Below are positions 11,215 through 41,602 of a stretch of 64,000 bases of DNA, in pieces. Source of the DNA: Saururus chinensis (Eukaryota > Streptophyta > Magnoliopsida > Piperales > Saururaceae). Made by a program: the position numbers and the translations under genes. Under the pieces are notes generated by a model, which saw nothing but the letters and a program-made list of their open reading frames with translations, was not told the origin of the DNA and did no database searches. Location of the stretch: NCBI GenBank assembly GCA_035235625.1, contig CP141148.1:25917057-25981056 (forward strand), given 5' to 3'. Every line of letters starts with the position of its first letter. Within the stretch, counting starts at the first letter, position 1.

Positions 11215-12510
11215 GATAGCAACTGCACTAGAAGAGAACAATAATATGCTATGCATCACATTTGCAGTGGTCGAGAACGAGTGTGAGAAAACATGGTTTT
11301 GGTTTCTTAAATTGCTTAGAAATAATCTATTTTTTTATCCTCCAGCCAAGTTGGATACATTTGTTTCTGATAGAATGAAGGGCTTAGAAAATGCTATTAA
11401 GCAGTATTTTCCCTCTACACACCATGGATATTGCATACATCACACAACAACAAATATGTTGGATAGATTCAAAGACAACTACCTAAAGAACTAGCTCCAT
11501 ATGGCCGCTAAAATTTTCAGACATAACGTGTATAATGAAATAATAAACAACATTAAAGAATATAATCCTAAAACATTTGTTTGGCTAAATAAGATAGGTT
11601 TAGAGCACTAGGCTAATGTTGCATTTCCAGGAAAAAGAAATGAAACACTCAGCTCAAACAAATCTGAAAGTGTTAATGCAATGTTAAAAAAAGTCATGCC
11701 AATGTCTATAATTCAGTTAATTGAGCACTGATGGGAGCACACAACCGCACTATTTGAGAAACATCGAACAAATGGATAAAATATGACTGAAGAGTTAACC
11801 CCATTTACCCATAAACACATCAAAAATAGAAGAGAAGAATCAAGGAATGTGTATGTATTGCCGGTATCAATGTATTAATTTTAGATTAACTTGCTATATC
11901 ACCAGGTAAAATGCAATTACTATCGTGTGTAAGTTCATACGTTATTGTCCATCTCATGTAAGTTTATCTATTAAAATAACACGATAGTTCTGATCGTATG
12001 GCTAGTGTTGATGGGTCATATTTTTTATAACACGATAGGAATCATTTATCATGTTCTCATTCACATGATATTCATTGAACATGATGTTGTGAATCTAGTC
12101 GAACGTAGCTGCACATGCAGAAAGTTTTAGCATCTGAGGCTACTGTGTAAACATGCAATTACAACAATTGATCACATACACTTCTATGTATTTAAGTACT
12201 GCAAAAAATGGTACTCCACATAAACATATGGAATGACATATCGAGAGCCTTTATACCTAATGACAGATAGGCACCGACTAGAGTTCTGCCTACATTCAAC
12301 CCACCTATCCCACTCAAGCAGCAGGGGCGTCCATGGAAAAACCGGATAAGTCACAACCAAAGGTCAAAGCCCCATGCAAATGTGGAGCATGCGGGTAGTT
12401 AGGTCAAAACCGCAAACATTGTACCAGTGCACAAGAGGACCCTCTGAATGTGGTTGATGGTCCAAGTACAAGCCGAATGAGGGCGACTAAAAGAGAAGGA
12501 AATGTCGTAA
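11215..12510 (+). pseudogene. MULE transposase relic, copy A
   Basis: The longest clean frame is 11246-11494. It reads through a MULE catalytic-domain segment: FAVVENECEKTWFWFLK, then VSDRMKGLENAIKQYFPSTH and a CxxH pair in CIHHTTT, typical of the DDE fold and its zinc-binding insert. It ends at a TAG after FKDNYLKN. Homology continues in pieces to about 11880 with further stops (for example TAG after GLEH near 11610 and TGA near 11730). A basic GRP tract and a decayed CCHC knuckle (CGACG...HCT) follow at about 12300-12440. No intact transposase can be made here. The N-terminal region lies left of the F1 LTR, outside the window. Confidence 0.82.
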
Positions 12511-15500
12511 GGAAGGGGAACATCGATCGAGGTTGCCTTTTTTACCTTCTTTCTTTAGTTTATTGGAGGAAATGTCATTGTAAAGTCATGTTCTTTGAAA
12601 CATGATTTTGTTTATGTATCATGTTATTGATAGCATGACCTAGTTAAGGATCGTGATGTCAATAACATGATATTTTGATTTTTTGTTTGTAAAAATTCTA
12701 TACTGTATACATATCATATAATCAGAAACACGCCCAAAGACTTTACGTGTTACCAATTACACGATAAGAAAAGATCTTCAATGAACATTATATTTTTTCC
12801 TCACTACGTGTCATCAATTACATTATATCGTTAACATCGTAATATCGATTATACAACAATAGTATTAAATAAATGATCAACTTCCAAAGAGTCACTCCAA
12901 TTTTTGGCATCACCATTTATCAAAGAGTTAGTCCACTTTCCGGCATAGACTCCATGAAGTCCGAATTGCCAATTCGCGAGGAGTCATCACCAACTTCCGA
13001 TGCATCTATTTTTGAATCAGCAATTATAAATACGCACCTCCTAATAGATCAAGTTACCATTTGGCGGCCATTGTTGGGATAATGCTCACACACGGAACTT
13101 CACTACCAGGACGAATCGAATACCATCGGTCTCCATGAGCACAATATGGTCAGCTGTCTTGGAAAAATGCAACCCGATCTAGACATTTAAATAATGCTCA
13201 GTCATGACTTTGTTAGCCTCTAAGGCGGATGAGTAGAGCAGTGTGGTCATCATCCGCCTCTGGGGAGGAAGACTTATAATCTACCTTTATTTCAATGTCC
13301 CATTTGTCTAATTGAATTTTATCTAATGGCTCATCAGGTCGTGGTTATAGAGATAGTTGGTGTACAATCTTCTTAAGAAACATTTGACTTTCATTGTCTA
13401 TTGTATTGACTGTGTTTGATCCTTTACTTGCAATTGGTGGTGGAGCACTTGCAAACCCTCCAGGAGACATATGTCGAAACTTCCAGGTATAGCGTGTATG
13501 ATGAGACATATCTACTTGGTGTACAATCTTCTATTTTCAGTATTGCGACCGGTGAATGGATGGTGGTCTACTGATGTATTTTTTTTTTGCTTTTTTATGT
13601 TCCATAAAAAATAGTATCCTTGCCAGATACTAAGGTCATTTTGTTTATGTAATGGACTCATCAAGTAATATTGATAAAATAAAGTGTTTTTCCCTACAAC
13701 TTTGTTGTTCTACTATCCTATTTTGCAACTCATGAAAAAGTTTCAAACCATGGCGTATAACACTTTATCAATAAAAAGATGTGAACTATATGACACATGA
13801 CCTGTCTAAAGCTTGCATTATTGGTGAAATGATCAACATACAGTTGTGTTCTTGCTGACACGATCATCACGCTAATATGGTATGACCTAAATATACTTTG
13901 CCTGATCGGATACATGACCAACTGGAAGATCATGTTTTTCCTAACATAACGTAAACAATAGTCGTATGAACGATGACATGACATACACCTTGGCGTGTTA
14001 TTGCTTACACGAGCTGAAACCTATCTTAGATGACTTAATATGGCTTCGTGTCATTAGTAACATGACTTATGTATATGCGTCATGCAAATTACACGATGTG
14101 AATCCTATATTACACCCACGTACATGAGTTCGTGTTAGTAGTTACACAACTAAAGTAAAGTCGCGTAGTTGATTACATGATCTACCATAGATTACACAAT
14201 AGGGAATGGAATTAAAACAATTGAGTGAACTTTATAAATTATGTATTGTCATAGAGTCTAAAAAAACAGTAAAACATATTACAATTCATTCGTTTCTTGA
14301 TCGAATTCAAGATCGATTCACCCACGAAGAATTACCGCACAAATATGAGGCCTAACCTATTTTGTGATCTCCGCTTGGGTAAAATCTGGTTGAAGGATTC
14401 CTCCGGCCAGCTTCGCTGCATAATTCATGAGGAACACACCACAATCTTCATTCGTCTCTTTATACGACCATTTGTTGATCTTCGTTAATGGCCACTTTGT
14501 TGCACTCTCTATGTGCAAGACCCTTTCCATTTCTGTGGCAACACGTTTCCGAATATGGTCCACCTCTACAAAGTGGTGATTGTGCTCACCCTTTAGTGGG
14601 TTATACCACCTAAAACTCTTCTTCCTGCATCGGGCAATTAGCAGAAGAAAATGGCCAAAGATGTAGATCAGAATGAAGCCATTCTCAGTGTTAACATTCA
14701 GCCTCTTCATCAAGTTCCCAACTATTTTGGGGCACATCTCTTCCTTATCATGTTGTGTCCCAACATTGTAGTAGTGCTGGATCGTGAATCTCCCAAAAAA
14801 ATAGTTGGGATAAAGCATGGGATATCTAATATTGTGCTCCTCTAAAAGTTGGCTGAAGATGTCTATGGCCTTAAATCATCAACAAAATATTAGTGTTAGT
14901 GATAACATGACATACGATACATCATGTCACTACGAACACGACATGTGAATTTATCATGTAATCGATAACATGACATAAAATATGTCATATAATCACAAAT
15001 ACGCTAGTTATACCAATAATATCATTTTAAAATTATCAAGTTATTGATACAACGATATGTGGATGTTTCTTATTATCAATAACGTGATAAACAGAAGTGG
15101 TCTTTGCCACTTTTCACCTATCGTGTGATTCATAACACACTATGTAATGCAATGTATGTTTAAGAACACAATAATTAACTAGTCACTAATCATTACCTCA
15201 TTCGTTATGCACTCCTGTCTAAGCAGAAACACATAATCAATGTAGAGAAGTGTCACCATGGGCCATTCTTTGTGTGGATACGTCAAGAAGTCCTAGATGG
15301 TCTCCTGATCTTTAACCCGTAAAATCTCCATGTAGAACACAGTCTGTAGATCAAGGTAGTTGTGAGGCACCATAGTGACCTCCTTGTCCTTTTGCTGCTC
15401 AACACTCTTCGACGTCTATCACATGTAAGATATTTTCTCGTAGTTCCTAATCAACTTGATCAGGATTATTCGATTTAGTGCTACTAATGGAAGCAACATT

Positions 15501-16260
15501 TGTTCCCGCCATTTTCAGGGTCGGAGACTTTATAGAAAATGCCTCTGGTGCAGGGATAATATATGGGATAGGGATGGATGCCAATGGAACTTTATCCCCT
15601 AACTTTGCCTTCTGCTCCTCCTTTGCCAGCCGAGTCGTCTTCTCTATCTTCTTGGTAATGTAGCTGCTATATCTCATTGGCTTCTTTGTGCCCTTTGCAA
15701 ACACTTCTTGGCAGGTTCCTCCCCCTTTGATGCATGAGCCGGTAGATTAGCCACAATGTACCTCGTCCCCCTAGGCACGGGGGATAGTAGTGATGCGATG
15801 GGGCCAACATTTGAAGCTTTCCGCTTCTTTATCTTCAGTTTTGTTTGGTTTGGTAGCACTGCTTCCTCCTCCCGTCCTTGACCTAATTTTTCCTCCCAGG
15901 ATTGTACATTTACCTCCTCTCATGATTGAACCACTTCCTCATTAATTTTCTAGAGGAATATGGTGATTACGGTCTTTTCAACTTTTGTACCCTTCTTATT
16001 CTTTGGGGAGCCAACTTTTAGCTGCTTTTTCTTTGCATATAACATTTAGCAATTTGTAATAGTAAATAAACGACATGCAAACAATGCATGTTATTGATAA
16101 CACAACATGTCCACCTATTGTATTGAAACTAATACATTAATATATGGGTTGTGTTATCACTCACATGACCACTACCATATCATTTTCTTATAAAATGACA
16201 ATGTATGTTTGCGTGTTATTGATGACATGATGACCTCAAAAGTAACACGATAATAGAAAA
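11930..16260. repeat. Dispersed palindrome array in MULE copy A
   Basis: Non-coding blocks 11930-12130, 12570-12860, 13730-14220, 14880-15190 and 16070-16260 are dense in copies of a palindrome near TCGTGTTATCGATAACACGA. Clear examples lie at 12745-12767, 14045-14066, 14075-14098, 14953-14974 and 16211-16232. Half-sites ACACGA/TCGTGT and their CpG-decay forms ACATGA/TCATGT are the commonest words. Coding blocks between them have far fewer. Confidence 0.75.
12870..13470 (-). pseudogene. Unknown MULE-encoded ORF, copy A
   Basis: On the minus strand an ATG at 13470 opens a frame beginning MSPGGFASAPPPIASKGSNT and stops after 41 codons at 13345-13347. Protein-like sequence continues past the stop (DEPLDKIQLDKWDIEIKV, then SSPEADDDHTALLIRLRG). 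The block to 12870 is conserved with 38230-38829 in copy B. It lies between the convergent transposase and Ulp1-like genes. I do not recognise the protein; its N-terminus is low-complexity (P, A, S, N). VANDAL-type MULEs also encode accessory proteins, so an accessory role is possible but unproven. Confidence 0.45.
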
Positions 16261-16903
16261 GGTTGTGTATTTGAAAATATACTTAAGCAAAATGAAATCC
16301 TCATTGACAAACTGAGGGACAAATTTTCTTTGCTCTTTACTAGCAGGTTGGTGAAAAACTTCACTTGATTTAGAAGCTTTGGCCTTGACCAAAATCGATG
16401 TCTCTTCTTCATTTGTTGGCGGAGGGGTTGCTACATGCCAGATCTCCGATTGAGGGGGTTCATGTGGCTTCTCGGTCTCCAGTTCAGGTGGGGGTTGCAT
16501 CTATTCTAATAAGCTAGTTGACACCTCGAGAGCATTTTTAACCCTCTGGAGCACAACTTGCACACTGTCAGTACTCCAACCCCGCTCCCCATATAAGATG
16601 GCCTTCTCCAATACCACGTCAATGATCCCACTCATGACATCTACTGGCATGACGAAGCTATCAATGACATCTTTGCTGGATTGAAATTGCCTTGACGTCT
16701 AGCCACGATGGGCTTGAATGGGAATCATTTTCCTTTGTACCAGTGGTATTTCTGTCCAAAAATTTTCTAATACCGTGTAAGTCCAGGTTCAACGGCATTT
16801 TTGTAAAAAAACTAGGGAATATGAAATATTCACTTCTACGACTAGGTAATATGAAAGTTTGAGTATCAGCTAGGTGGCTTTGCATCTGCCGCTTGGTGGC
16901 CAA
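14297..16903 (-). pseudogene. Ulp1-like (C48) cysteine protease relic of MULE copy A
   Basis: The C-terminal frame 14357-14818 holds a Ulp1-type catalytic region: a His in GHFLLLIARC, an Asn where Asp is usual in RWYNPLKG, and the nucleophile Cys in TNEDCGVFLMNY. Upstream on the minus strand come low-complexity, Lys- and Pro-rich parts (15447-15859) and a segment with PPPTNEEETSILVKAK (16216-16500). The most upstream frame, 16661-16903, begins MATKRQMQSHLADTQT. Stops and palindrome-rich AT spacers separate the parts, some of which may be former introns. Ulp1 proteases remove SUMO; those carried by MULEs have no firmly known role. Broken here. Confidence 0.75.
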
Positions 16904-17325
16904 AAACCTTTTCTGCCCTCTACTACCTAAGCCACTAGATTTTCCATTTGCGTATCAAAATCTTGTGGCTGACATGCTAATGAGACACTTTGCAAAAAAA
17001 AATCAGATCACATGAATCATTTAATTATGGTCCCACATAAGGTAGAGGCAGGATTTTAGTGAACGTGATTATAAGATAATAAAGTTTTAAAATTTCTTTT
17101 TCTCTTTAACAGAATAACTACACTAGGGTCTTCTCAATTAAAATATACTAGCAAGAATGCACAGTATTATACATATAAATATAGATTAGATAAGATAGAA
17201 AAATAATTTAAGAATAAAATATGTATTGAAGAAAGATCTCTCATTCACGTGATAGTTACAATATAGTTATTTGAGGAGCACAATGATCATTAATTATACA
17301 CACAAACTTTATACTAACCTATATA

Positions 17326-19142
17326 CACTCGTAGTTGGCAATTGTTGTAACACCCCGTCAAAATTTGTAATAAAAGAAAATATTTTTTGAAAATATTTCG
17401 AAATGTAATTCTAAATGCTAAGGATCACCAAGTACAAAAGAGTAATTCTAGCATACTTTTTATTATACAAGAGTTCCAAAGTTTGGCATAACATGCCTTT
17501 ATACATCAGTCATTACAAATATTACACAAATTTTAAAAAAGTAAACATATACTTTAAATTATGAAAGCTCTTCAACCACTTCTTCGAGTTTAGAGGTTAC
17601 ACCTGTAGAATTTGAGGGTGGTTGAGTAAATTCATACTAAATAGGTTGAATTAAGTTCTACAAATATGCTTCATGAACACATTAGTTGTGTTATAATTTT
17701 AAAAATCATTCAAAAAATAATAATTTTTAAAAACTTATAATCATAGAATGTTGCGGTACTAAACGACTTACACCCGCGCTCATGGGGCAATGGGAGAAAG
17801 AAGGAAATGATTTTTTCCATGATATCCTAGTTCTTGTGCGCGCCTAAGCCAAGTGTGGCAGTATCCCAAATCTTTATCATGATAATTTCTAGTTTTGGAG
17901 AACAAGGAACTATCCAAAGGGTACGGGTGCCCTAAACATGAAAAACCTCTTCAAATGAAAATAAGCCTTCAAAGACATAGTTTCTTTTAAAAATAATTTT
18001 TTTTTTAAATTCTTTAACAAAACCTATAGAAATCAAAATAAAAGCATATGTCTAGAAATTAAAATCACCTACCTCTAATAGGCTCAAGTTCTTCCAACAG
18101 TTTTAGGTTATGGTAGTGAGAGTATCTTCTCAAGGTTTCTCAGCTTTTGAGCGGTCAACTCAAGAAAGTAGCCCTTCCGGTGTATAGAATACCCTCGATT
18201 TACTAAGGAATGTCTTTTGAATAGACTCAAACTGGTTTAAAATAGTCTAGGAACAATAAAAGTAAGATGAGGAGGGAGATATGGTTTTCTCGGCTTTAGA
18301 GAGGTCAATTCAAGAAAATGACCATTCCAGTGTGCAGAACACCCTTGATTTAGTAAGGAACAACTTTTGAATGGATTGAAACGGGTCTAAAATGGCTTAG
18401 AAATAGTGAAAGTAAGAAGAGGAAGAAATGAGGGTGTGTAAAAAAATTTCACCCTGGGATGATTTAAATACTGTTCTACGTTGTGCAACATAGACAATTT
18501 TGGCGGTGCGTGTGATGAATGCGCATTTGTCACACGTGTTCATCACTTGTGTGACACGTGCCACGATTTTTTTTAAAGCTTCTAACTTCAAATGATCATA
18601 TCTTTCTATCCTGGACTCATATTTGAGCGTTCTTGGTACCGTTGAGCTCGTATTGACAATCCTACGAAACTATATCACTTATTAGAAGGTTTGCTCACAC
18701 TTTACAAGTAGATCTTGCTCACATAATACGCTTCCTGAGGTCGTAACTTTCACTCCCGATCTCTGTTTCTCATGTTCTTTGACTTGTTATGCTCGTCTCT
18801 TCGAGCTCTAACCGACACTTAAGAAATTATTGAATAATAAACTCTAAAGAATTAAAATTCATTATTAATGTTCATATTGACTTTACTCTTGAAATAAAGA
18901 TCATACCAGAAAATTAAGGTTGTTACAATTGTAAATCCAAAGCTCATAGGCTAAATATTATATCATAGGTTGACGAAGACAATAGTGTTGAAGGACTTTA
19001 TGTTGCTAATCACATTATTCATACTTTCACTCGTAGTTGGCAATTGTGAATCTAAAGCTCATAGGATAAATATTATATCATAGGTCGGCGAAGATAATAA
19101 TGTTGAAGGACTTTATGTTGTTGAACATGTTATTCATACTTT
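17326..19142. repeat. 115-bp tandem duplication, first copy split by a solo LTR
   Basis: Copy 2 (19028-19142) begins cactcgtagttggcaattgt and ends ttattcatactt. Copy 1 starts with the same words at 17326, is interrupted at 17345 and resumes at 18930. The uninterrupted second copy shows what the site looked like before insertion, which supports the LTR boundaries independently of the target duplication. Confidence 0.9.
17346..18929 (+). mobile_element. Solo LTR (Ty3/gypsy type, F3), TSD ATTGT
   Basis: Starts TGTAACACCCCGTC and ends GGTTGTTACA, 1584 bp, flanked by ATTGT at 17341-17345 and 18930-18934. The 3' third (phrase gttcttggtaccgttgagctcg near 18630, then CTCTTCGAGCTCTAAC) is shared with the F2 LTRs at 36260-38206 and 26122-31656, so they are sister families. 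It contains an internal imperfect duplication with period about 160 bp (starts near 18137 and 18297). No internal coding region, so a product of LTR-LTR recombination is likely. Confidence 0.93.
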
Positions 19143-19865
19143 GACAAGTTTGGCAGCGGGTCTTATGTGTTAGATATATTTTCCAAAAGCATTAAAAAAT
19201 GCATATCTAAATACGTATACTATATGTAAAAAAAATACCATTGAGAAGTGTGCTATATGCATGAGGTTTACAAAAAGTTTGAAAATATATAGTCATATGG
19301 GATCTCATTTGATAGAGCTCGTTGAGAGCTTCTAATGATACGAAGAATGCACGAATCTGAGTTTATGCGAGCAAGATATAATATTATAAAATTATAGTCA
19401 ACATAACCTAAAAAAATAGAGATTTTATTTTAACATCTTTAACTTTTTTGGGGATTAAGATTAGGATTAGGATGGGTTAAATAAGCATAAAAGAGGGATT
19501 GCTATTATAAAACATAGGTTGAATCGTTAGAATTTAAAAATTATATACTACACCAAATTGTTTTATATTATAGTATAATAAAAATAAGTAATTTATTTTA
19601 ATAAAAATAATGTGTGTTTAATGTGCGTTAATAGGGGCGTTAGTCATTCTGTATTTCATATTACAATTCACCAATTTTTAAATATGTCATTAAGTCATTT
19701 AGGATTTTATACACGAAATTCATATTGTTGCGTGTCGTTTAAGATTTCACACATGAATTCTAAAATATCACGTTACTCAATTAAGTTGTGATTTTATAAC
19801 CCCTATATATAAAATGTAAGAGGACAACCAATTTGTACGTGGTGTGTGCATTTCCAATTACGACC
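19143..19865. other. Unassigned AT-rich sequence
   Basis: No gene, LTR end or repeat was recognised. A phrase ttgatagagctcgttgagag near 19310 resembles parts of gypsy LTR tails elsewhere in the window, so an old LTR fragment is possible. Confidence 0.3.
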
Positions 19866-23647: not shown

Positions 23648-24340
23648 TCAACAACTTGTACAATTAATACATCTGCTTTTAGAACAGCCGGACCGGAGCG
23701 GCGCGCCGCAGAGGTCATCGTTGCCGTCGAATGATGCACAGTCGTACGAGGCAAAGATAGACGGGATGTTGCCAGAGAGGTGGTTGTTGGCAACGGAAAA
23801 GCGTTTGAGGCGTTTGAGGCGGGCCAGCTGGGGGGGGAGGGCGCCTGAGAGCTCGTTGTCGTCGAGGACCACGGTGTTGACATAGCGGCAATTGGCGAGC
23901 TCAGGGGGGATGGAGCCAGAAAGTCGGTTGTTAGAGAGATCAAGGTGGACTAAGTAGGGGAGCCACTTGCAGATCCCGGCGGGGATGGGGCCGGAGAGGT
24001 TGTTGCCGGAGAGGTCGAGGGTCTGGATGGAGACGCAGTACTGGAGGTCCGAGGGGATGGCGCCGGCCAGCGACATGGCCTGAAGGCGGAGGTCGATGAT
24101 ACGGTTCTCCAGCTCGTTCCAGCAGGTGACACCACTGAACTTGCAGATGAATCCGACGGGGGCGGCTGAGTTGGAGAAGTCCCAGCTGGAGAGCTTCCCT
24201 TGCGGGTCTTGCAGCGAGCGCTTCACCCCAGTTAGGCACCGGACGTCATCCTCCTTTGCCGCAGACGCCACACCAGCCAAGGAGCTGAGGAAGGAGAAGA
24301 GGATGACAGCAAGAAACCCTTCACCCAATTTTGACCCCAT
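23648..24340 (-). CDS. BIR-type LRR ectodomain, no kinase (truncated or secreted)
   Basis: One uninterrupted 230-codon frame. Residues 1-27 form a signal peptide (MGSKLGEGFLAVILFSFLSS...GVASA). An N-terminal LRR cap follows with DVRCLTGVKRSLQDPQGKLS and SGVTCWNELENRI, then about four to five LRRs (LDLSGNNLSGPIP, LDLSNNRLSGSIP, LDDNELSGALP) and FDGNDDLCGAPLRSGC. This is the ectodomain of the BIR/At1g27190-like pseudokinase receptors that regulate BAK1 at the plasma membrane. In family members a transmembrane helix and kinase follow; here the frame ends after 11 unrelated, Cys-rich residues (SKSRCINCTSC) and AT-rich DNA follows. GC content is far above the flanks. It is either a 3'-truncated pseudogene or an ectodomain-only secreted protein; the open frame is undamaged. 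Confidence 0.85.
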   Translation of the reverse strand: MGSKLGEGFLAVILFSFLSSLAGVASAAKEDDVRCLTGVKRSLQDPQGKLSSWDFSNSAAPVGFICKFSGVTCWNELENRIIDLRLQAMSLAGAIPSDLQYCVSIQTLDLSGNNLSGPIPAGICKWLPYLVHLDLSNNRLSGSIPPELANCRYVNTVVLDDNELSGALPPQLARLKRLKRFSVANNHLSGNIPSIFASYDCASFDGNDDLCGAPLRSGCSKSRCINCTSC

Positions 24341-25082
24341 CTGAATCTTGGATCCCTTTTGGAGAAATTGGGATCTGGGTTTTGGTTGGTATGGGAGAAA
24401 CTGGTCAAATTTTGAACCAGACGCAATCAGATGGTTATGGAGGTAGTTGCTGCCGATTCAGCTGGAGGAGGGAGAGGCCGGAACAGAAACACTAGTTCTA
24501 GAGTAAATATATCAAAGGTGGTTGGGGCCTTCTAGCATAAAGAAAGGATCATCTCTTCTTCTTTAACCAAACGGCTGCTGCATTCTTGAGTTTGATTTGG
24601 CTTCATTTGTTAGGGTTTAATCTTATTTTATTTATGATACATCATCATTGGGCATTTGGTCATGGATGTTTTTCTTCAAAATTCCGTGTAGTGAAGATAC
24701 AGGGAAAGTTCTACCAAAGAAAATACATGACAAATTACTTAATTCAGAGAGTGTTTTCACAATCTGACCTTATTAAAGGTAGGTCACATCTCCGGCCAAA
24801 GTCAAGTCGTCTAGCGTTCGGCAGTCTATGATAATTCCCTCCTGTTTTTTCTTTGGCACTTCTATGATATTTCCTCCCCCTTGCCCGCAACATCATTTGG
24901 TAATCAAAGGGACCCAAACAAATACCATATTTTTTTTATGGTACTTGGCTAAAAAAGTTAATATTTTATGTTTTCTAGATTTTAAACAAAAAAATCATAT
25001 ATTTATTTTAGGACAAAATTACCCTTAGGTTTTAAATAAATTTATTGACTATATATATTATAATTAATACTAAAATAGTGCG
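24341..25082. other. 5' flank of the BIR-like gene and unassigned sequence
   Basis: Immediately upstream (minus sense) is a plausible 5' leader to about 24500. The rest is AT-rich with no recognised gene or repeat. The left edge of MULE copy B is somewhere near 25080 but no terminal repeat was found. Confidence 0.3.
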
Positions 25083-25342: not shown

Positions 25343-26121
25343 ATGAATATTGATCCGTCAGTGAAGTTCGGCGAGCTATTGTTTCATGTTAAAGAACAAC
25401 TTGTCGTCAATGGTAATGTGACTTTGAAGTATTTAATTATATCTTCCCAATTATCAACTATATATGAATTAGAAGACGATAAGGATATGTAATCAGTATT
25501 TTTTATTTATAAGAAAGCAAATAAGAAGGTGTTATCATTGTATTCCAAGATGAAAAAGCCCGACAACAGTGACAAATCATCATCAGTAGAAATGAACTAG
25601 ACATGTAATAAAGCTAAATCACCAGTAGTAATTGCTCCCTCAACTCTAACTTCAGGTTACATATGGTAGTCAATAATACACAATTCACTTTTGAAACTGT
25701 CAGGTAACAATCAATTTTAGATTACACGACGTGTACTTTATCGTGTACTCGATCACATGATATTTAACCTGCCATGTTCAGTTCAAAGAATATTGTGTGA
25801 AGAAAAAATATGATAGTTATAATATCACATAACTAATTATGTGAAATACATATACGATATAACATTAATTCTTTTTAGCGTAGATGTAATAACATGACCT
25901 ATATACACATTTTGTTATCAATAACACGATATTATTTGTAAATGTGTAACCGAATACACGATGTCAAATTATACAGCATATTGATTAACACATTAATACC
26001 CAATGTAGATTGGGAGAACCGGGAAATTTGAACTCAACAAATCTATGCCATTCTTCTTACAACAATCAATGCCTACAAAACTTGTGATATAGGTCAATCA
26101 GACTGGACTAGAAGAAATGTC
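25343..26121 (+). pseudogene. MULE N-terminal ORF relic, copy B
   Basis: A 49-codon frame from the ATG at 25343 begins MNIDPSVKFGELLFHVKEQL and ends ELEDDKDM before a TAA near 25490. Further protein-like sequence follows (FFIYKKANKKVLSLYSKMKK). The pattern, a small ubiquitin-like/PB1-like start with an acidic DED motif, is what MULE transposase genes commonly have at the N-terminus. Palindrome-rich AT sequence (25700-25990), perhaps an intron, follows. The continuation after the LTR insertion is at 31657. Confidence 0.5.
25700..25990. repeat. Palindrome cluster in the 5' part of MULE copy B
   Basis: Contains good copies of the TCGTGTTATCGATAACACGA-like motif at 25740-25761 (both half-sites and the central TCGA present) and 25911-25932 (TTATCAATAACACGAT), plus half-sites at 25720-25735 and near 25960. 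It shows that the array also occupies the region before the transposase. Confidence 0.75.
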
Positions 26122-31000: not shown

Positions 31001-31656
31001 GAACTGCATGTGCTAATTAGGAGGTGTGCTATGATATGATCCATTGTGTTATGTTATGTTATGCCTTTCCGTTATGTTTTAATATGCGTGGATATGATAT
31101 GTGATTAGTCTCGCTCTAGGGTAGAGCGAGTCGTGTGGTGTGTTGGGTCTAATTTTGGGGTAGATCAAGACGTATGAATATGTTTAGATCCACTCTGGGG
31201 TAGAGTGGGACATGTGATGATGTCCATGTGATGCTCGGCTCTATGATAGAGTGAGATGTGTGTTTCTGGTGTTTTATAGGCTTCCGTATGACTCCAATTA
31301 AATATTCGGTGAAACATATTTATTCATATTTGTTTTTGTATAGCTTGATGTATGTAATAGCCGTTAGGCAATATTCGATGGTATCGGAGTATCATCGTAG
31401 ATGTTATCCGATGCATATGTAGGCAACCAATGGCAAGACAACATTGGCATGATCCGAATTAAATATAAAAATAGGTTTGTTTTAGCCTATGCGCAATAGA
31501 GCGCTAAAGTTCCATAGTGCGTAGAGGAAAGTAACGACTCTCGTACTCAGAGTCCGCCACTCCTAGTTTTATGTTTTTACATTTTGGGTTACCCACAGTT
31601 TGGGTTACCCCCTGTGAACCCCCGGCAAGGGTCAGTTTCTAGGTCGGGGCTTTACA

Positions 31657-31880
31657 ATGTCGCCAACGATGGGTGCGATATGGACTTCATTTGATAACTA
31701 TGAACCCCCATACAACCCTTGTAATTACAATGACAGAGAATTTGAAGAAGTGTAGGGTGATATTCAATGAAACGTGAATGACATAATTGACATGGAAAGT
31801 ATGTCCAACCATGAAGAATTCGGACACAACGAGGTACCCAGTAATTTTGACAATGAGGCTGAGGCATTGGGTGTTGTTTG
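31657..31880 (+). pseudogene. MULE transposase N-terminal fragment, copy B
   Basis: Between the F2 nest and the F1 LTR, a plus-strand protein-like stretch reads MGAIWTSFDNYEPPYNPCNY, then after stops DIIDMESMSNHEEFGHNEV and NFDNEAEAL. It is acidic and Asn-rich. It should continue the ORF of 25343-26121 and precede the transposase part at 34670. I do not recognise a domain. Confidence 0.4.
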
Positions 31881-34669
31881 CTACTGATTTTGATGTCTTA
31901 TAGCCAGCTGAGTACTTCTTAGCCACCGGCCGACCTTTAGTGAGTACACCTCAACATCCGGTCCATCCTGCCACTCGTTGGCAGGACCTTTCTCCCGACC
32001 GCCTTGTGCGCCACCGTGGATCACGGATTTTGTCACATTGATTTATCTCACCTCATTTGGCGATGAGTACTTCTCGGGCTTCCTAAACCCTTGGGACAAT
32101 AGCTCTCTCAACTTGGTCGTGTTCTCACCTTCAAACATCATGAATTACGAGGTAGGGGAGCTTTGACCTTGTAATCTCATGCTTTAACCTTGTAATTCCA
32201 TGATAGCATGCTTTGAATGTGTAGCAGCATGCTACAATTGTATGATTCAATGCTTTGAATGTCAAAACATGATCTGTTTACATGATGTAAAAGGATAAAT
32301 TATGCTATGTTAAAATGCATATGACATGCATGTGACTTGTAAGTATGTTTGAAATATGTATGTACTAGTGATGGCTAGCGAGTATGTTGCTAAGCTATGT
32401 ATGTGGAGTATGTGTGTACTAGTGATGGCTAGCAAGTTTGTTGGTAAGCTATATATGTGAAATATGTATGTGCTAGTAATGGCTAGCAAGTATGTTGGTA
32501 AGCTACGTATGTGGATTGTGTGTGTACTAGTGATGGCTAGCAAGTATGTTGGTAAGCTATGTATGTGGATTGTGTGTGCATTAGTGATGGCTAACAAGTA
32601 TATTAGTAAGCCATGTATGGAATTGAGTGTATGAAAGTATGTGTGGTGGACATGTATGTATGATGGATATACACCTATGTGACAGATATGTGTATGTGTG
32701 TGTGGGCAGAAGTATGGGTGACGGACGGTAAGAGGTGACAGAGGGTTTGGTGTGAAGTTGGATGTGGATTGTAAGCGTATAATAGAAAATGGAGGATGTA
32801 AGTTTGAAGTGCGAGGATTGGATCGGTTTGGAATGGAGCGTATGTTGGGGGATTGTCAGACAATAAGAGTGTTGCATAATTTTACAAGCATAACGTACAG
32901 ATTAAGTTAAAAGTAAGCATAATAAGTGAGGTATAAGTAAGAGAGTGATAATTGGGGTTGGCTCTGAGGAGCTTAGTTTGTTGAGGGTTGTGTAAGATGT
33001 TTTGTCCATAAGGTGGATGACAAAGGATGTAAGACCGTAAGGATTTTTTTGTTCGGTGAGTTTTGATTATGAGTTGGACGGGTTAAGTGAAGTGGAATGC
33101 CCTAACAAACAAGGGTTTCGGAATGGGCTCAACTTCAGTTTGATCAGTGGAAGACTGTAAGATTGAAGTTTGTGTGGCATAATTGTAAACTTAATTCAAA
33201 CTTGATTTATAGGCAAAGCTAATATGATAACATTGTGGGTTTGAGGGTTCAACGAATTAAGTTATGTGTTTGAGCTAGATGATAATGAGTCAACTTAGCA
33301 TTTCTCATGTCTTGCCATGGTGTTTGTGCTGCGAGATGTTGTCTGTGTGCTGTATTTGAGCCCAAGACGTCTAATGCTCTATTGAGAGCGATGTATGTTT
33401 TGATTTTGTCTACGTGATATACTAAGCCTAGACATTTTATGCTCTATTGAGAGCGCTGTATGATTTTGCCTAAGAGTGACACTGTATGATTTTGCCCAAG
33501 AGTGGCACTGTATGATTATGCCCAAGATTTGCACTGGCACTATAAGACCCCTAAAGTGTGGGCAATTGTATGGCCCCTAATGTGTGGGCATTTATGCTTG
33601 CACACTCAGTGAAGTAGTATCATGGAATTGCTCTTACCTGTTTGATATTGTGCCCCATGAGCATTGGTATGCCTTGCCTTCTAAAAAGTCCATTGCATCT
33701 AGTCACTCCCCGAAAGTTAAAGTGATGCCCCAGTGACATTTTTCATTTCAGTGCTGGAGCTTATTAATTGTAATGAGCTTCAATGGTTGATAGTATGTGT
33801 ATGACTGTATGAGTGAGTATGTATGTTTCTGAATATGTGTAAGTTTCTGAGTAAGATTCGTACAAGTAAGATTGTACGAGTAAGGTCATATGAGTAAGAT
33901 GGTACGAGTAAGGTTATATGAGTAAGGTCGTATGAGCAAGATTGTACAAATAAGGTCATACAAGTATGTTTAGGATTGGTTTGATGGTATGTATTTACCA
34001 TGATTGCATGCGTTTGTGCGTGATTATTATATGCTTGTTTGCTTCGTGTTTGAGTTATATGAACGCATCTATGTATGGACTTTCAGAGTTCACTATTTAG
34101 AACTTCCCTACTGGGTATTTACCTACTGACTATGAAAATATTCATTTGCCCTATTTTTTTAGCCCCAATGTTTGGGAGCCTTTTGCAAGTTTTTGTCAGA
34201 GAGCTCCTGGAGATGGATGCTCATTTCTGTGGTGGATTGATTTCCTTTGACTTAGGTATATCCTTGACTCATTGCAAGTATTATTTTGTGCCACAATCTA
34301 ATGTATTAGGTGAGATGAGAAATAAGATGTTTATGTTTTCTGGACTTGTAATTTGGATTAGACTATGGATTGTTATGGGACCTATACTCAGGGATGCTTG
34401 TGAGAGATTCGTATTTAAAGTCTATGATCATAGCAATTTATTTTGTACGTTTGTTTTCGAGTAGAGCCTGAGATTGTTTGGTTTGGCTGTATGATATTTG
34501 ATCGAATGAATAAAAATTTGTATGAGAAAAATTGATGTGTGATGTTTTAAATAATAAAGATACTTTCATATGTTTTGTATTTGTCATTTTTCCTGATTTA
34601 TAGCAGTTATGTTGCAAAAAAAATTCTCGAATATTTAAGAAAATATGTTGGAAAATCTCAGGCATTACA
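31881..34669 (+). mobile_element. F1-family LTR inside MULE copy B
   Basis: Matches 7270-9930 and 1-772 plus 9931-11214. It starts within the end of the GC-rich leader (lacking the first part) and ends CAGGCATTACA at 34669. No target duplication, since the 5' end is missing. It sits at the same MULE position as the F1 copy ending at 11214 and is the least interrupted F1 body in the window. Confidence 0.7.
32340..32625 (+). repeat. 54-bp minisatellite inside the F1 LTR, copy B
   Basis: About five units of the same 54-bp repeat as at 220-500 (gtaagctatgtatgtgg...ctagtgatggctagc). Unit sequences are not shared one-for-one with the array at 220-500, suggesting independent expansion or turnover. 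Confidence 0.8.
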
Positions 34670-35914
34670 AATATTAACATGAACAATAATATGTTTTGTG
34701 TCGCACTTGTAGTGGTCGAGAACAAGTGTGAGAAAACATGGTGCTGGGTCTTGAATTGCTTAGAAATAATCTATTTTCTGACCCTCTAGCCAAGTTGGAT
34801 ATAATTATTTCTAATAGAATGAAGGCCTTAGCAAATACTGTTAAGCAGTATTTTACCTCTACACACCACAAACATCACATGGCAGCATATATGTTGGATA
34901 GGTTCAAAGACAACTACGTAAAGAACCAGCTCCGTATGAAAGCTAAAACTTTCAAACAAAATGTGTACGATGAAACAATCAATAGCATTAAAGAACATAA
35001 TCTTGAAGCATTTGCTTGGCTAAATAAGATAGGTTCAGAGCACTGGGCCAATGTTGCATTTCCAGGAAACAGATATAGAATACTCAGCTCAAACAGGTCT
35101 AAAAGTGCTAATGTAATGTTAAAAAAAGTCAGGTCAATGCCTATAACTCGGTTAATTGAGCATACAAGGGAGCACACAACTACACTCTTTGAGAAACATC
35201 GAACAAATGGACAAAATATGACTAAAGAGTTAACCTTATTTACCTGTAACACATCAAAAATAAAAGAGAAGAAGCAAGGCATGTGCACGTATTGCCGATA
35301 TCAATGTATTAATTCTAAGTTAACACGCTATATCACCGGGTAAGTGCAATTACTATCATGTGTAAGTTCATACATTATTTCCATCTCATGTAAGTTTATA
35401 TGTTAAAATAACACGATAGTTGTGATCATAAGGCTAGTGTTGATGAATTATGTTTTCAATAACACAATAAGGATCATTTATCATGTTCTCATTCACACGA
35501 TATTCATTGAATAAGAAGTTGTGAATCTAGTCGAACGTAGCTTCACATGCAGAAAGTTTCAGCATTTGGCTACCATGTAAACATGCAATTGCAGTAATTA
35601 ATCACATACACTTCTATGTGTCTGAGTATTGTGAAGAATGGTACTCCACAGAAATATATAGAATGACATATCCATAGCCTTTATACCTAATGATAGATAG
35701 GTACCAATGGGCACTGACTGGAGTTCTACCTACATTTAACCCACCTATCCCACTCAAGCAGCGGGGGCGTCCACAAAAAAACCAGCTAGAATCACAACCA
35801 AAAATCAAAGTCTCACACAAATGTGGAGCATGCGAGCAAACAAGAGAACCCTCCAAATGTGGTCGATGGTCCAAGTACAAGCCGGAGGAGGTGACTAAAA
35901 AAGTAGGAAAATGA
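34670..35914 (+). pseudogene. MULE transposase relic, copy B
   Basis: The frame 34738-35343 (201 codons) is the longest MULE coding piece in the window: NRMKALANTVKQYFTSTHHK, then DRFKDNYVKNQLRMKAKTFK, NKIGSEHWANVAFPGNRY, SSNRSKSANVMLKKVRSMP and TLFEKHRTNGQNM. These correspond to the second half of the MULE catalytic domain. It is frameshifted relative to the preceding FCVALVVVENKCEKTW segment. A basic GRPQKN tract and the start of a CCHC-type knuckle (KCGACEQTREPSKCG) follow in 35690-35914. The CIHH pair seen in copy A is lost here. Non-functional. Confidence 0.82.
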
Positions 35915-36259
35915 CGTAAGGAAGGGGAACACCAATCGGGATTGCCTTTTCTACCCCCTTTCTTTAGTTGATTGAAGGAAGTGTCATTGTAAAGTCGTGT
36001 CCTTAAAAACATGATTTTGTTTATGTATCATGTTATCGATAACACGACCTAGTTAAGGATCGTGATGTTGATAATACAATCTTTTGATTTTTTGTTTGTA
36101 AAAATTTTATATTGTATACATATCGTGTAATCGGAAATACGCCCAAAGATTTTGTGTTACCAATTACATGATAAGAAAAGACTTTCAATGAATATAATAT
36201 TTTTTCTGCACTACATGCAACCAATTACAAGATATCGTTAACATCATAATATCGATAAC

Positions 36260-38206
36260 TATAACACCCCGACCTGAGCCGGGGTCCAAAAATCTCGAAT
36301 AAAAATTTTCTTCCTTAAATGAGGAGACATCATCGTGTGCAAGAGGTATAATGTTCTACTATGCACTTCGGAGCTTTTATGCTTCATCGTGTTTAAGTTA
36401 GAACAAACCTAATTTTATAACTAATTTGGATCGAGCCAACATTATAGTACCATTGGTTGCCTACGTACGTATTGGATATCATCTACAATGTTATTCCAAT
36501 ACGATCAGATTTGAACATAGTTATGCTTAACGATTATTACATACATCAGACATCATAAAATTATGTATGTTAAAATACGTATATCCTTATATTCAAGTAC
36601 ATCATTTGGTGTTAAACTGAAATCTCATAAATCATCGGAGTCAGATGAAATTCTCATAAATCATCAGAATTAAACGGAAGCTAACAAATCAACGAAATTA
36701 CACATCTCGTTGAACACAACATAGCAGATTGGATTACATCAGATCCCATCTGATCATATCAAATCAGATTAGAGCATATCAGATTAAAACAGAGTATTTC
36801 AGAGCTTATCAGATTATATTAGATCAAAGCAAAACATATCAAAACACATCGCATCAAAGTATAACTTATATCTCAAGTAGCACATGCATTCATATAATCA
36901 TATATCTTAAGTGATACATGCATTCATATAATCATATATCTTAAGTGATACATGCATTCATATAATCATATATTAAATTAGAAGATAAAAAATACTTACT
37001 CCCCTATAGATCTAGAAGTAGCGGCGCTCAAAGTTGCTCCTTCATTCAGGGAGTCCTTTCCTTTAGATTCAAAGACGGTAGACATAGCCTCCTCTTGCAC
37101 CGGAAATGCTTCTCACTTTCCACGCCTGTAGGCAACGAACAAAACATCCACTCACCTGGAGATGTTTCTTACTTTTAGTGCCCATGGGTGACAAACATAA
37201 CATCCCTTAACCCCGGAGACGCTTCTCACTTTTTGTGCCCATAGGCAACAGATAGAATCTCCCCTTACCCGAGGACTTTTTCTTCTTTCCGCGCTTGTAA
37301 ACTGCGGGCAAAACCTCCCCTTAACTCGGGGATGTTTCTCTCACAGTGTGGCCCTTCGGTGGAGGACAGAGCCTCCCCTACCCTGGGCCACCTCTCTTGC
37401 TGTGGCCCGACAATGGAGGACAGAGCCCCCTCTTGCTCCAGGAACTTCTCTTTCTTCGGTGCTTGAGGGCGACAGACAGAGCCTCTTCTTGCCTTAAGAC
37501 ATTTCCCCCTTATATGGTTGTCAAATTAAAGAATGGACCTTCCATTGCATAGAACATACTCGATTTAGTTAAAAACGCCTCTTAAATAGACTAAATCGGA
37601 CTTAGAATGATCAGAAATAGAGAAAATGAAGTTTTGTGTTCAAAAATACCCAAAATGGCTATTTAGAGCCCTCAGCCTGGCCGAAACAACGACGCTACTA
37701 TTTTTTGGCAGCGGTGCCCACTGAAATGGTGCTATGCATACTGCGTGCATTGCGCAATGCCTGCACATGATGCTCGCACTACAACACATGGGGCCGATCT
37801 ATGACATGGGGACCGCGCATCGCGTGCTGTGTGGCCGAGCCTCGTGTGCGTGGATTTTTTTATGTACTTATCTTCAAATACACATATCTTTCTACTCCGG
37901 CCTCGAATTCGCGCGTTCTTGGTACCGTTGAGCTCATATGGACGAGCCCTACAAAACTAGACCACTTAAAGTAATTTATCTTACTCTTTTCAAGTATGTC
38001 CCACCCAAATTATATGCTTCCCAAAGTCATAACTTTTGCTCCCAACCACTGTTTCGTGTGCCCTTCAATTTGTTACACTTGTTTATTCGAGCTCTAACAA
38101 TATACAAAGATTTCATCTCTTGAAACCCCTCTTAAAATTATATAAAAAAATATCTAATTACCCCTAATCCCTCGGGTTAGATATAATTGAAAAATGGGCT
38201 ATTACA
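36260..38206 (+). mobile_element. F2 solo LTR, TSD ATAAC
   Basis: Starts TATAACACCCCGACC and ends GGGCTATTACA, 1947 bp, flanked by ATAAC at 36255-36259 and 38207-38211. It is inserted in the palindrome block of MULE copy B; copy A at about 12850 shows the uninterrupted region. Its 3' end is shared with the LTR at 26122-31656 (opposite orientation) and more distantly with 17346-18929. No coding. Confidence 0.93.
36883..37480. repeat. Two tandem arrays in the F2 solo LTR
   Basis: At 36883-36974 a 34-bp unit starting catgcattcatataatcat is repeated 2.7 times without visible differences, so it is recent. Just before it (36725-36850) is a loose array of AGATTA/ATCAGA words. At 37080-37480 lies the degenerate 58-65-bp array (CGGAGATGCTTCTCACTT with GTGCCCATAGGCAACA) shared with 30340-31000. 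Confidence 0.8.
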
Positions 38207-38229
38207 ATAACATGAAAAATGCATTAAAT

Positions 38230-38829
38230 AAACAATAATCTCCGAAGAGTCACTCCAATTTTTGGCATCACCATTTACCGAAGAGTTAGTGCACTTTCCG
38301 GCATAGACTCCATAAGCCAGAATCACCAATTCGCAAGGAATCATCACCAATATCCGATGCATCCGTTTCCAAATCAGAAATTATAAATATGCACCTCCTA
38401 TTAGATCAAATTACAATTCGACGCCCACTATCAGGATAATGCTCGCACATGGAACTTCATCGCCGGGATGGATCGAACACTATCTGTCTCCATGGGTGCA
38501 GTATGGTTAGCCGTCTGGGCAAAATGCGGGCGCGATCTGGACATTTAAATAATGCCCAATCATGACTTCTTCAGCCTTTGAGGCGGATGAGTAGACCGGT
38601 GTGGTCCTCATTCGCCTATGGGGAGGACGACTCATAATCTGGTGTTATTTCAATGTCCAGATTGTCTAATTGCATTTTACTTGATGGCTTACCAAGTTGT
38701 GGTCATAGAGATAGTTGGTGTACGATCTTCTTACGAAACATTTGACTTTTCTTGTATTATATTGACTATGTTTAATCCTTCACTTGCAGTTGGTGGTGGA
38801 AGAGCACCTGCGAACCCTCCAGGAGGCAT
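38230..38829 (-). pseudogene. Unknown MULE-encoded ORF, copy B
   Basis: Counterpart of 12870-13470. On the minus strand the ATG at 38827-38829 opens MPPGGFAGALPPPTASEG and stops after about 32 codons. The downstream block to 38230 matches copy A closely, including the sequence around ctttccggcatagactcc. It is conserved beyond the stop in both copies, consistent with a once-longer protein. Function unknown. Confidence 0.45.
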
Positions 38830-39667
38830 ATGTTGAAACTTCCAGACAGAGCGCGTATGATGAGACATATCTACTTGGTGTACAATCTTCTATTGTCAGT
38901 ATTGCGATTGGTGAATGGATGGTGGTCTACTAATATATTTTTTGGTTTTTTATGTTTTGTAAAGAATAGTATCTTTGCCAGATACTAAGGTAAGGTCATT
39001 TTGTTTATGTAATGGACTCATCAAGTAATATTAATAAAAGAAAGTGTTTTTCCCTACAACTTTGTTGTTATGTTGTCCTATTTTGCAACTCATGAAAAAG
39101 TTTCAAACCATGGCATGTAACACTTCATCAGTGATACGATATGCACTATATGACATATAATCTGTCTCAAGCTCGCGTCATTGGTGACACGGTTAACATA
39201 TAGTTATGTTCTCATTGACACGATCATCACACTAATATGGCATGACCTAAATATACTTCGTCTGATCGAATACATGACCTTCTTGAAGATCATGTTTTTC
39301 CTAACATGACATAAACAACAGTTGTATGAACGATGACATGACGTACACCTTGGTGTGTTGTTGCTTACACGAGCTGTAATCTATCTTAGATGACTTAATA
39401 TGGCTTTGTGTTATTAGTAACACGGCTTATGTATATGTGTCATGCTGATTACACGATATGAATCCTATGCTAGACGCACATACATAAGTTTGTGTTAGCA
39501 GTTACACGACTGAAGTAAAATCACGTAGTTGATCACACGATTGGCTACCATAGATTACACGATAGGGAATGAAATTAAAACAATGAGTGAACTTCATAAA
39601 TTGTGTATTGTCATAGAGTCTAAAAAAATAGTAAAACATATTACAGTTCATCTACTTCTAGCTTGAA

Positions 39668-41421
39668 TTATGGATCAATTTGCCCACGAAGAATGATTGC
39701 ACAAATATGAGGCCTGACCAATTCTGTGATCTTCGCTTGGGTAAAATTTGGTTGAAGGACTAATTCGGCCAGCTTTGCTACGTAATACATGAGGAACACA
39801 CCACAATCTTCGTTTGTCTCTTTATATGGGCATTTGTTGATTTTCATCAATGGCCACTTTGTTGCACACTTTATGTGTAGGACCCTTTCCATTTATGCGG
39901 CAACATGTATTCTAAATATGGTCTACCTCTGCAAAGTGGTGATTGTGGTCACCCTTTAGTGGGTTATACCACCTAAACCTCTTCTTCTTACATCGGGCAA
40001 TTAACAGAAGAAAATGGCCAGTGACGTAGATTAGAATGAAACCACTCTTAGTGTTAACATTTAGCCTCTTCATCAAGTTCCCAACTATTTTGGGGTGTAT
40101 CTCTTCCTTGGCATGCTAGATCCCAATGTTGTAGTAGTGCTGGATCACGAATCTCCCAAAAACATAGTTGGGATAAAGCATGAGATATCTAATATTGCAC
40201 TCCTCCATAAGTTGGTTGAAGACATCTATGACCTAAATTCATCAACAAAATATTAGTATTAGTGATATCACGACATACAATATGTCATGTCACTATGAAC
40301 ATGACATGTAAATTTATCATGTAACTGATAGCACGACATGAATTATGTCGTGTAATCACAAATACGAGTTATACACGTTAATATCATTTTAAAATTATGT
40401 TGTTATTGATACAACGATATGTGGATGTTTCGTATTATCAATAACGCGAGAAACAGAAGTGGCCTTTGCCACTTTTCACCTATCATGTGATTCATAACAT
40501 GCTATGTAATGCAACGTATGTTCAAGAACACAATAATTAACTAGTCACTAATTATTACCTCATTTGTTATGCACTTCTGTCTAAGCAAGGACACATAATC
40601 AGTGTGGAGAAGATTCACCATGGGCCATTCCTTGTGTGGATGCGCCAAGAAGTCCTGGATGGTCTCCTAATCTTTAACCCATAGAATCTCCATGTAAAAA
40701 CACAGTTTGTAGATCCAGGTAGCTGTGCGGCACCATAGCAACCTCCTCCTTGTCCTTTTTCCGCTTAGCGCTCTTCAATGTCTATCACATGTTGGATACT
40801 TTCTCGTAGTACCTGATCAACTTGATGAGGATTATTCGATATAGTGGCACTACTAGAAGCAACATTTGATCCCACCATTTCCGAGGTCAGAGGCTTTGCA
40901 ATAAATGCCTTTGGTGCAGGGATAATATATGGGGCAAGGATGGATGTCAATGGAACTTCATCCCCTGACTTTGCCCTCTGCTCCTTTTTTACTGGCCGAG
41001 TCATCTTCACAATATTCTTGGTAATGTAGCTGCTATATCCCTTTGACTTCATTGCACCCTCAACAACCAACTTCTTGGCAGGTTCCTCCCTCTTTGATGC
41101 ATGAGCCGGTGGATTAGCCACCGTGTACCTCATCCTCCTAGGCATGGGGGGTAGTAGGGATGCGATGAGGCCAACATCTAAAGCTTTCCACTTCTTTATC
41201 TCCAGTTTTATTTCCTTTGGTGGCACCTCCTCCCGACCTTGACCTAGTTTTTCCTCTCGTGATTGAACCACTTCCTCTTTAATTTTCCTAAGGAATTTGG
41301 TGGTTGCGGTCCTTTTAGCATTCAGACCCTTCTTTTTCTTTAGGGAGCCAGCTTTCGGCTCCCTTTTCTCTACATATAACATGTAACAATTCATATTAGT
41401 AAATACATGACATGCAAACAA
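39668..41421 (-). pseudogene. Ulp1-like (C48) protease relic of MULE copy B
   Basis: The C-terminal frame 39668-39892 has the nucleophile region TNEDCGVFLMYY followed by an LVRPHICAIILRGQIDP tail that copy A lacks in frame. The His/Asn part lies at about 39960-40040 in a broken frame. The N-terminal low-complexity region is an open frame of 218 codons (40765-41421) with MLYVEKREPKAGSLKKKKGL, KKEQRAKSGDEVPLTSI and PHQVDQVLRESIQHVI, longer than in copy A. The upstream exon seen in copy A at 16216-16903 is missing because copy B ends at 41602. Confidence 0.75.
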
Positions 41422-41602
41422 TGTGTGTTATTGATGACATGACATGTCCACCTATCGTATTAAAACTAATATGTTAATATATACGGTCATGTTATCGCTC
41501 ACACAACCACTACCATATCATTTTCTTATAAAACGACAATATATGTTTGTGTGTTATCGATGACAAGATAACCTCAAAACTAACACGATAATAGAAAAGG
41601 TC

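What the first reader, a model, noticed from the sequence alone, without database searches (positions are those of the whole stretch)
11930..41602. Dozens of degenerate 20-bp palindromes fill the non-coding parts of two Ulp1-bearing MULEs
Seen: both MULE copies and the 5' piece at 25700-25990 are packed with variants of TCGTGTTATCGATAACACGA (for example 12745-12767, 14045-14066, 14953-14974, 25740-25761, 25911-25932, 36027-36048, 40317-40338). Coding blocks have far fewer. Much of the variation is at the CpGs (TCG to TCA, ACG to ATG), as expected from methylation decay of a once more uniform array. Known: VANDAL-type MULEs carry dispersed short motifs (YAGTATTAY type) bound by VANC anti-silencing proteins. 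Inference: this family may have its own CpG-containing binding site, for a transposase or for an accessory protein such as the unknown ORF. I know of no description of this motif.
Basis: partly seen in the sequence, partly recalled or inferred. Interest (0 to 1): 0.75.

Follow-up and report, generated by a model that had tools for sequence, protein, structure and literature searches.

The report
VANC-like target palindromes in Ulp1 MULEs
Two jumping genes in this plant DNA are filled with a 20-letter palindrome that is probably the docking site of a protein that such jumping genes make to resist being silenced, a strategy known from Arabidopsis but here with a symmetric docking site.

Summary
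The window has 65 palindrome sites of at least 11 bits against 1.5 in Markov sequence; the 516-Mb genome has 8,045 forward matches at up to 3 mismatches against 11 for the reversed control. No site lies fully inside 9,280 bp of supported coding sequence; 250 lie in 62,219 bp around it. Gaps in the long elements favour whole helical turns (the short elements do not). Deviations concentrate at CpGs. Six of six Ulp1-MULE loci chosen without regard to the motif carry it. The 'unknown ORF' is a linker exon of the Ulp1 gene, whose first exon in relatives is DUF1985, the domain of the Arabidopsis anti-silencing proteins VANC; no DUF1985 was found in the window copies. Two other DUF1985 lineages in this genome carry different repeated motifs. 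Short TIR elements concentrate the palindrome (23-44 sites per locus). Best reading: target sites of a VANC/KIU-type anti-silencing protein. Binding and demethylation are untested. New variant of a known kind.

The parts
11207..16863 (.). MULE copy 1 (5' part missing at the junction with an LTR-like repeat); 3' end near 16863
   Evidence: coding matches; the end 16813-16863 matches the typed TIR string at 31 of 51, only a little above the 24-30 seen elsewhere, but resembles the end of L015 (36 of 51)
11210..11902 (+). transposase exon, copy 1 (PF10551 MULE in 11207-11491)
   Evidence: Pfam E 4.9e-14; tblastn 67% to L028
12016..12068 (.). palindrome cluster, 2 sites, before the SWIM-bearing exon; the second site overlaps the first residues of the tblastn match 12044-12481, probably intron
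12586..12856 (.). palindrome cluster, 7 sites, 3' of the transposase gene
13844..14180 (.). palindrome cluster 3' of the Ulp1 exon
14282..14875 (-). Ulp1 (Peptidase_C48) exon, copy 1
   Evidence: PF02902 E 5.1e-5 on 14360-14875; tblastn
14891..15140 (.). palindrome cluster in the intron 5' of the Ulp1 exon
15701..16126 (-). linker exon, copy 1, broken
   Evidence: tblastn 35% to L029 middle exon, E 1.4e-8
16086..16230 (.). palindrome cluster, 3 strong sites, at the next intron
16504..16734 (-). second linker exon, copy 1
   Evidence: tblastn 62% to L027, E 3e-26
25741..25961 (.). palindrome cluster in the detached 5' piece, 5 sites
34750..35336 (+). transposase exon, copy 2
   Evidence: tblastn 69% to L028
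35448..35500 (.). palindrome cluster, 2 sites
35564..35893 (+). SWIM-bearing exon, copy 2
   Evidence: tblastn 51% to L028; Pfam SWIM E 0.021, below cut-off
35995..36171 (.). palindrome cluster, 5 sites, with the best site of the window at 36028 (19 of 20)
39173..39540 (.). palindrome cluster 3' of the Ulp1 exon, copy 2
39644..40232 (-). Ulp1 exon, copy 2, broken frame
   Evidence: tblastn in two pieces
40254..40533 (.). palindrome cluster in the intron 5' of the Ulp1 exon, copy 2
   Evidence: no Pfam match; tblastn 40-48% to the L029 middle exon at 40918-41460
41391..41568 (.). palindrome cluster at the next intron, copy 2

Best explanation
The palindromes are the target sites of an element-encoded, sequence-specific anti-silencing protein of the VANC/KIU kind. 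In more intact relatives one gene, running against the transposase gene, encodes DUF1985, poorly conserved linker exons and a C-terminal Ulp1 domain. Its product, probably a dimer because the site is a dyad, would bind clusters of the site in introns, intergenic and flanking parts; steps of whole helical turns would put the proteins on one face of the DNA, and density would give specificity. Bound protein would remove or block DNA methylation and let the element's genes work. Short elements with TIRs carry a dense array and would be served in trans. Shown here: sites, distribution, spacing, conservation, family-wide presence, gene architecture in relatives, and different motifs with different DUF1985 lineages. 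Inferred: that this protein binds the site, dimerises and counteracts methylation.
For: Six of six loci picked by their Ulp1 frame carry 9-45 sites. Sites lie in the intron 5' of Ulp1 in 12 of 13 copies. 0 sites in supported coding. Palindrome columns are better conserved than spacer between subfamilies with held-out masks: 65.5-68.9% v 48.7-52.9% (12 copies). DUF1985 exon found by tblastn in 6 loci with palindromes (L011, L017, L027, L028, L029, L031); 7 of 150 DUF1985 hits have an Ulp1 hit 3.1-7.4 kb 3' on the same strand, none on the opposite strand within 15 kb, 0.33 expected. Other lineages: TCGCTGCAACGTTGCAGCGA 1,435 v 1 control and 19 of 50 listed places within 13 kb of lineage-2 DUF1985; GGAAAACTATAAAACTGGAAAACTATAAA 435+521 v 0, 70 of 100 listed places within 6 kb of lineage-3 DUF1985, all on its strand. 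VANC precedent: PMC5735166, parts 1-3 of 6; VANC genes with Ulp1 (KIU): PMC13317346, passages.
Against: No binding or methylation data. The window copies show no DUF1985 and are broken. DUF1985 in L029 scores 30.6 bits, below Pfam's 35.1, after read-through of two TAG codons; L027 and L031 pieces gave no Pfam match. Phasing is weaker after strict filtering: 3 of 5,000 null sets as high (n=83), 41 of 5,000 with each gap once per locus (n=71), and no single group reaches 5%; group C peaks at 10.8-11 bp and the short elements at 8 bp, not 10.5. Only 4 of 46 listed palindrome loci lie within 13 kb of one of the 150 scored Ulp1 hits, since many sites are in short elements. VANDAL elements are described as lacking TIRs; the short elements here have them. 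The transposase gene could co-vary with the lineages as well as DUF1985.
Confidence: 0.7

Rival explanations
1. The palindromes bind the transposase itself, as accessory sites for transposition.
For: Transposase and sites share the same elements, and the short elements, which must use a transposase supplied in trans, keep and multiply the sites.
Against: Sites are spread through introns and intergenic parts over many kilobases, and in the short elements lie hundreds of bases inside the ends, whose TIR is a different sequence. No transposase family with such an arrangement was looked for here.
Confidence: 0.12
2. Passive tandem repeats: a 31-bp unit expanded by slippage or unequal exchange, without a function.
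For: In the short elements the whole 31-bp unit, spacer included, is repeated, and L006 alternates 31 and 54 bp, an 85-bp higher-order unit. The 8-bp best period of the short elements reflects their own repeat structure.
Against: In the long elements spacers have diverged while palindromes and spacing persist; sites avoid coding exons; the pattern recurs with other sequences in two other DUF1985 lineages.
Confidence: 0.08
3. Sites of a host transcription factor, taken up as enhancers or repressor sites of the element.
For: A dyad with CpGs is a plausible transcription-factor site (general knowledge); introns and flanks are suitable places.
Against: The motif differs between DUF1985 lineages of one genome, which a shared host factor does not explain. 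No host motif library was searched.
Confidence: 0.07
4. The sites act as a source of small RNAs or as nucleosome or chromatin elements rather than as protein sites.
For: [quoted passage not shown]
Against: Conservation is strongest at the two half-sites and weaker at the centre, as expected of protein contacts; not tested with small-RNA data.
Confidence: 0.03

Closest known systems
VANC21/VANDAL21 and VANC6/VANDAL6 of Arabidopsis (PMC5735166, parts 1-3 of 6 read)
   Same: element-encoded DUF1985 protein; short motif repeated in introns, intergenic and terminal noncoding parts and absent from coding probes; related families with different motifs
   Different: published motifs are 8-9 bp and asymmetric (YAGTATTAY, AGTTGTCC/AGTTGTAC), YAGTATTAY arrayed in one orientation; here a 20-bp dyad with three CpGs. 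Binding is shown there, not here
KIU-carrying VANDALs, VANC genes with an Ulp1 domain (review PMC13317346, passages; Sasaki et al. 2022 itself not held)
   Same: DUF1985 and Ulp1 in one gene, reported to act on motifs of their own kind; I recall, without seeing the text, that its abstract names motif density, helical periodicity and non-autonomous copies
   Different: described as non-TIR MULEs; here the short elements have TIRs and 8-10 bp duplications. Whether any published KIU motif is palindromic I could not check
Ulp1-bearing MULEs of grapevine, melon and rice (PMC2528002, passages)
   Same: Ulp1 domain inside MULEs, reverse to the transposase in KI-MULEs as here
   Different: no repeated noncoding motif is mentioned in the passages seen

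Membership tests
VANC-type anti-silencing system (including KIU) | element gene with DUF1985 | tested here: met
   Met in relatives: tblastn in L011, L017, L027, L028, L029, L031, 7 DUF1985-Ulp1 pairs in the genome. Not found in the window copies
VANC-type anti-silencing system (including KIU) | short motif reiterated in noncoding parts, absent from coding | tested here: met
   0 in 9,280 bp v 250 in 62,219 bp
VANC-type anti-silencing system (including KIU) | related DUF1985 lineages with different motifs | tested here: met
   three lineages, three motifs; one or a few loci read per other lineage, the rest from capped position lists
VANC-type anti-silencing system (including KIU) | protein binds the motif | not testable with these tools
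   needs EMSA, DAP-seq or ChIP-seq
VANC-type anti-silencing system (including KIU) | protein causes loss of DNA methylation at motif-bearing copies | not testable with these tools
   needs expression and bisulfite sequencing
VANDAL (non-TIR MULE) | no or short degenerate TIRs | tested here: not met
   nine short elements have TIRs matching 13-19 of 19 letters at each end; ends of the long elements were seen clearly only in L015, so the long elements are not settled
MULE superfamily | MULE transposase domain and 8-11 bp target duplications | tested here: met
   PF10551; duplications of 8-10 bp with 0-2 mismatches in nine short elements, found by a flexible search without a null
KI-MULE / Ulp1-bearing MULE | Ulp1 C48 domain on the strand opposite to the transposase | tested here: met
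   window and L028: transposase +, Ulp1 -

The most novel reading that the evidence does not exclude
A dimeric DUF1985-Ulp1 protein assembles cooperatively along one face of the DNA on sites three helical turns apart and uses its SUMO-protease domain to strip silencing factors; CpGs inside the site make binding methylation-sensitive, so the array is a bistable switch; short TIR elements have evolved super-arrays that capture this activity in trans. One genome hosts at least three DUF1985 systems with insulated motifs, two dyads and one directional repeat.
Probability: 0.2. Interest if true: 0.75.

Novelty: new variant of a known kind. Interest (0 to 1): 0.5.

Why it matters
It extends sequence-specific transposon anti-silencing to a plant genome with thousands of candidate target sites, offers three candidate protein-motif pairs from one nucleus, and provides a symmetric site whose spacing makes a helical-phase requirement and the role of the Ulp1 domain directly testable. 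Such pairs are possible tools for targeted changes of DNA methylation.

Tried and rejected
Promoter, terminator and RNA-family scans were not run.

The loci L006-L025 were chosen around motif matches, so they are no evidence of family-wide presence; L026-L031, chosen by their Ulp1 frame, are. The palindrome-against-spacer comparison with masks from the compared pair (72.2% v 49.5%) is inflated by selection and was replaced by held-out masks; L030 was dropped from both because it has no site there. Gaps of 62-66 bp and other multiples of 31 were dropped from the strict phasing test, and one window copy was kept. The middle exon's stop-to-stop frame overlaps sites at its 5' end (L028 7834-7933, L029 2671-2743), which I take as intron; it was not in the coding set. 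L021 and L025 were left out of the TIR table because an end was not found. A left end of copy 2 at 24927 (30 of 51) is no better than background and is not claimed. The species was not identified.

Full report
Observation. The palindrome is real and far beyond chance. In the window 36 positions match the consensus at 15 or more of 20 letters; a palindromic weight matrix gives 65 sites at 11 bits or more against 1.5 in Markov sequence. In the 516-Mb genome the pattern with up to three mismatches has 8,045 forward matches, its reversed control 11. No site lies fully inside 9,280 bp of supported coding sequence, 250 lie in 62,219 bp around it. The half-sites TCRTGT and ACAYGA are the most informative positions, the centre is weaker. 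Changes at the six CpG positions are mostly C>T or G>A: 0.23-0.36 per position, against 0.04-0.07 for transitions and 0.08-0.16 for transversions elsewhere.

Spacing. For the window, nine A and six C loci the successive gaps up to 160 bp (n=279) have a vector strength of 0.70 at 10.5 bp; gaps over 36 bp (n=169) reach 0.586, while 500 jittered sets reach at most 0.244. The gaps are not independent, since copies share history and tandem units. Without multiples of 31 and with one window copy, n=83, strength 0.429, 3 of 5,000 null sets as high; with each gap length once per locus, n=71, 41 of 5,000; window, A and C alone are not significant at 5%. Group C peaks at 10.8-11 bp, and the short elements at 8 bp with gaps of 31, 72 and 87 bp, so they do not support a 10.5-bp rule. 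I regard helical phasing in the long elements as likely, not proven.

Family. Six loci were taken only because they carry a near-intact Ulp1 frame. All six carry the palindrome, 9 to 45 sites at 12 bits or more in 10 kb. In 12 of 13 copies examined sites lie in the 330 bp 5' of the Ulp1 exon; the exception, L030, has none on either flank. Between subfamilies, palindrome columns defined on a held-out copy agree in 65.5-68.9% and spacer columns in 48.7-52.9%. Between the two dead window copies palindromes are slightly less alike than spacers, 86.6 against 91.1% (119 and 168 columns), which fits constraint in active elements and methylation decay in dead ones.

Gene. The minus-strand coding pieces belong to one gene. 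Its Ulp1 exon has a C48 match. In relatives the first exon carries DUF1985: tblastn finds it in L011, L017, L027, L028, L029 and L031, all of which have palindromes; in L029 it covers model positions 14-140 with 30.6 bits, below Pfam's 35.1, after two TAG codons are read through. In the genome, of 150 scored DUF1985 hits and 150 scored Ulp1 hits, 7 pairs lie on one strand with Ulp1 3.1-7.4 kb 3' (six of them at 3.1-4.0 kb; all seven are marked over the cut-off), 2 pairs have Ulp1 11-14 kb 5', none is on opposite strands within 15 kb; 0.33 are expected. The window copies gave no DUF1985 match. Palindrome clusters lie between the exons of L027 at 8921-9068, 7859-8011 and 6522-6724.

Short elements. 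Eleven of the twenty loci fetched around exact or clustered matches have 23-44 sites, nearly all within 0.8-1.9 kb. Nine were measured: 1.9-3.3 kb long, ends of the type GAGTTTTTTCCATATTACC (13-19 of 19 letters), target duplications of 8-10 bp with 0-2 mismatches, found by a flexible search without a null. A motif-free 311-bp flank gives 40 scored copies, itself included, at 85% identity or more among 346 candidates. L015, and more weakly the window, share a similar end. I did not search these elements for coding capacity. A dense array kept in elements that depend on others would be a cis role served in trans; that is inference.

Other lineages. DUF1985 is abundant: 957 candidates, 150 scored. 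Two loci of other lineages have no palindrome of this kind at 10 bits or more. L032 has its own dyad, TCGCTGCAACGTTGCAGCGA, with steps of 22, 29 and 51 bp; the genome has 1,435 forward matches against 1 in control. Of the 50 listed plus-strand places, 19 (5 of 24 loci by their first site) lie within 13 kb of a lineage-2 DUF1985 hit, where 0.6% of loci are expected by chance; none lies near one of the 150 Ulp1 hits, and none of 46 listed palindrome-1 loci lies near lineage 2, while 4 of 46 lie near an Ulp1 hit, 0.8% expected. L033 has 8/16-bp direct repeats TGGAAAACTATAAAAC before, between and after its long frames; the longer pattern has 435 forward and 521 reverse matches against 0. Of 100 listed places 70 lie within 6 kb of a lineage-3 DUF1985 hit, all on its strand and 69 on its 5' side, touching 47 of 109 members at 60% identity or more and 0 of 41 at 46-51%. 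Only rows that the tool lists were used, so the negatives are soft. Motif goes with DUF1985 lineage, as for VANC21 and VANC6; whether it follows DUF1985 rather than the transposase was not tested.

Mechanism and precedent. I propose target sites of a VANC/KIU-like anti-silencing protein. VANC21 localises to noncoding motif arrays and causes loss of methylation, and VANC proteins carry DUF1985 (PMC5735166, parts 1-3 of 6 read). A review states that VANC genes with an Ulp1 domain act on motifs of their own kind (PMC13317346, passages). I recall, without having seen the text, that Sasaki et al. 2022 report motif density, helical periodicity and the importance of non-autonomous copies; the paper is not held and only its title was seen in reference lists. 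The principle must therefore be taken as known. What looks new is the symmetric 20-bp CpG-rich site with its 31-bp step, the TIR-bearing short elements with concentrated arrays, and three motif systems in one genome. A search for the cores of both palindromes found no paper; one paper held all of anti-silencing, transposon, palindrom, binding motif and Mutator, and in the passages seen its palindromes are a TIR-finding program. Binding, dimerisation and demethylation are inferred.

Noticed in passing
window 9930-11223 and 33334-34678: Two copies of one repeat, LTR-like by look, end at the same point of the transposase in both MULE copies, which suggests that the repeat was already inserted when the segment was duplicated.
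   Followed up: no
window 9099-9226, 10407-10522, 33779-33975: Degenerate arrays of a 14-bp unit such as GTACGAGTAAGGTC inside that repeat.
   Followed up: no
window 32344-32613: Tandem repeat with a 54-bp step, copies 82-91% alike.
   Followed up: no
window 23648-24340 (-): 230-aa open frame that looks like the start of a leucine-rich-repeat receptor protein (by eye only).
   Followed up: no
L032 1694-2539: The lineage-2 DUF1985 frame also has a weak match to the plant mobile domain (PF10536, 24.2 bits, below cut-off); four genome copies are 99-100% identical, so this lineage may have moved recently.
   Followed up: no
G000, DUF1985 hits at 46-51% identity to L033, for example C10:5854060: A further DUF1985 sublineage, often with open frames, shows none of the listed lineage-3 motif places (0 of 41); it may have a motif of its own.
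   Followed up: no
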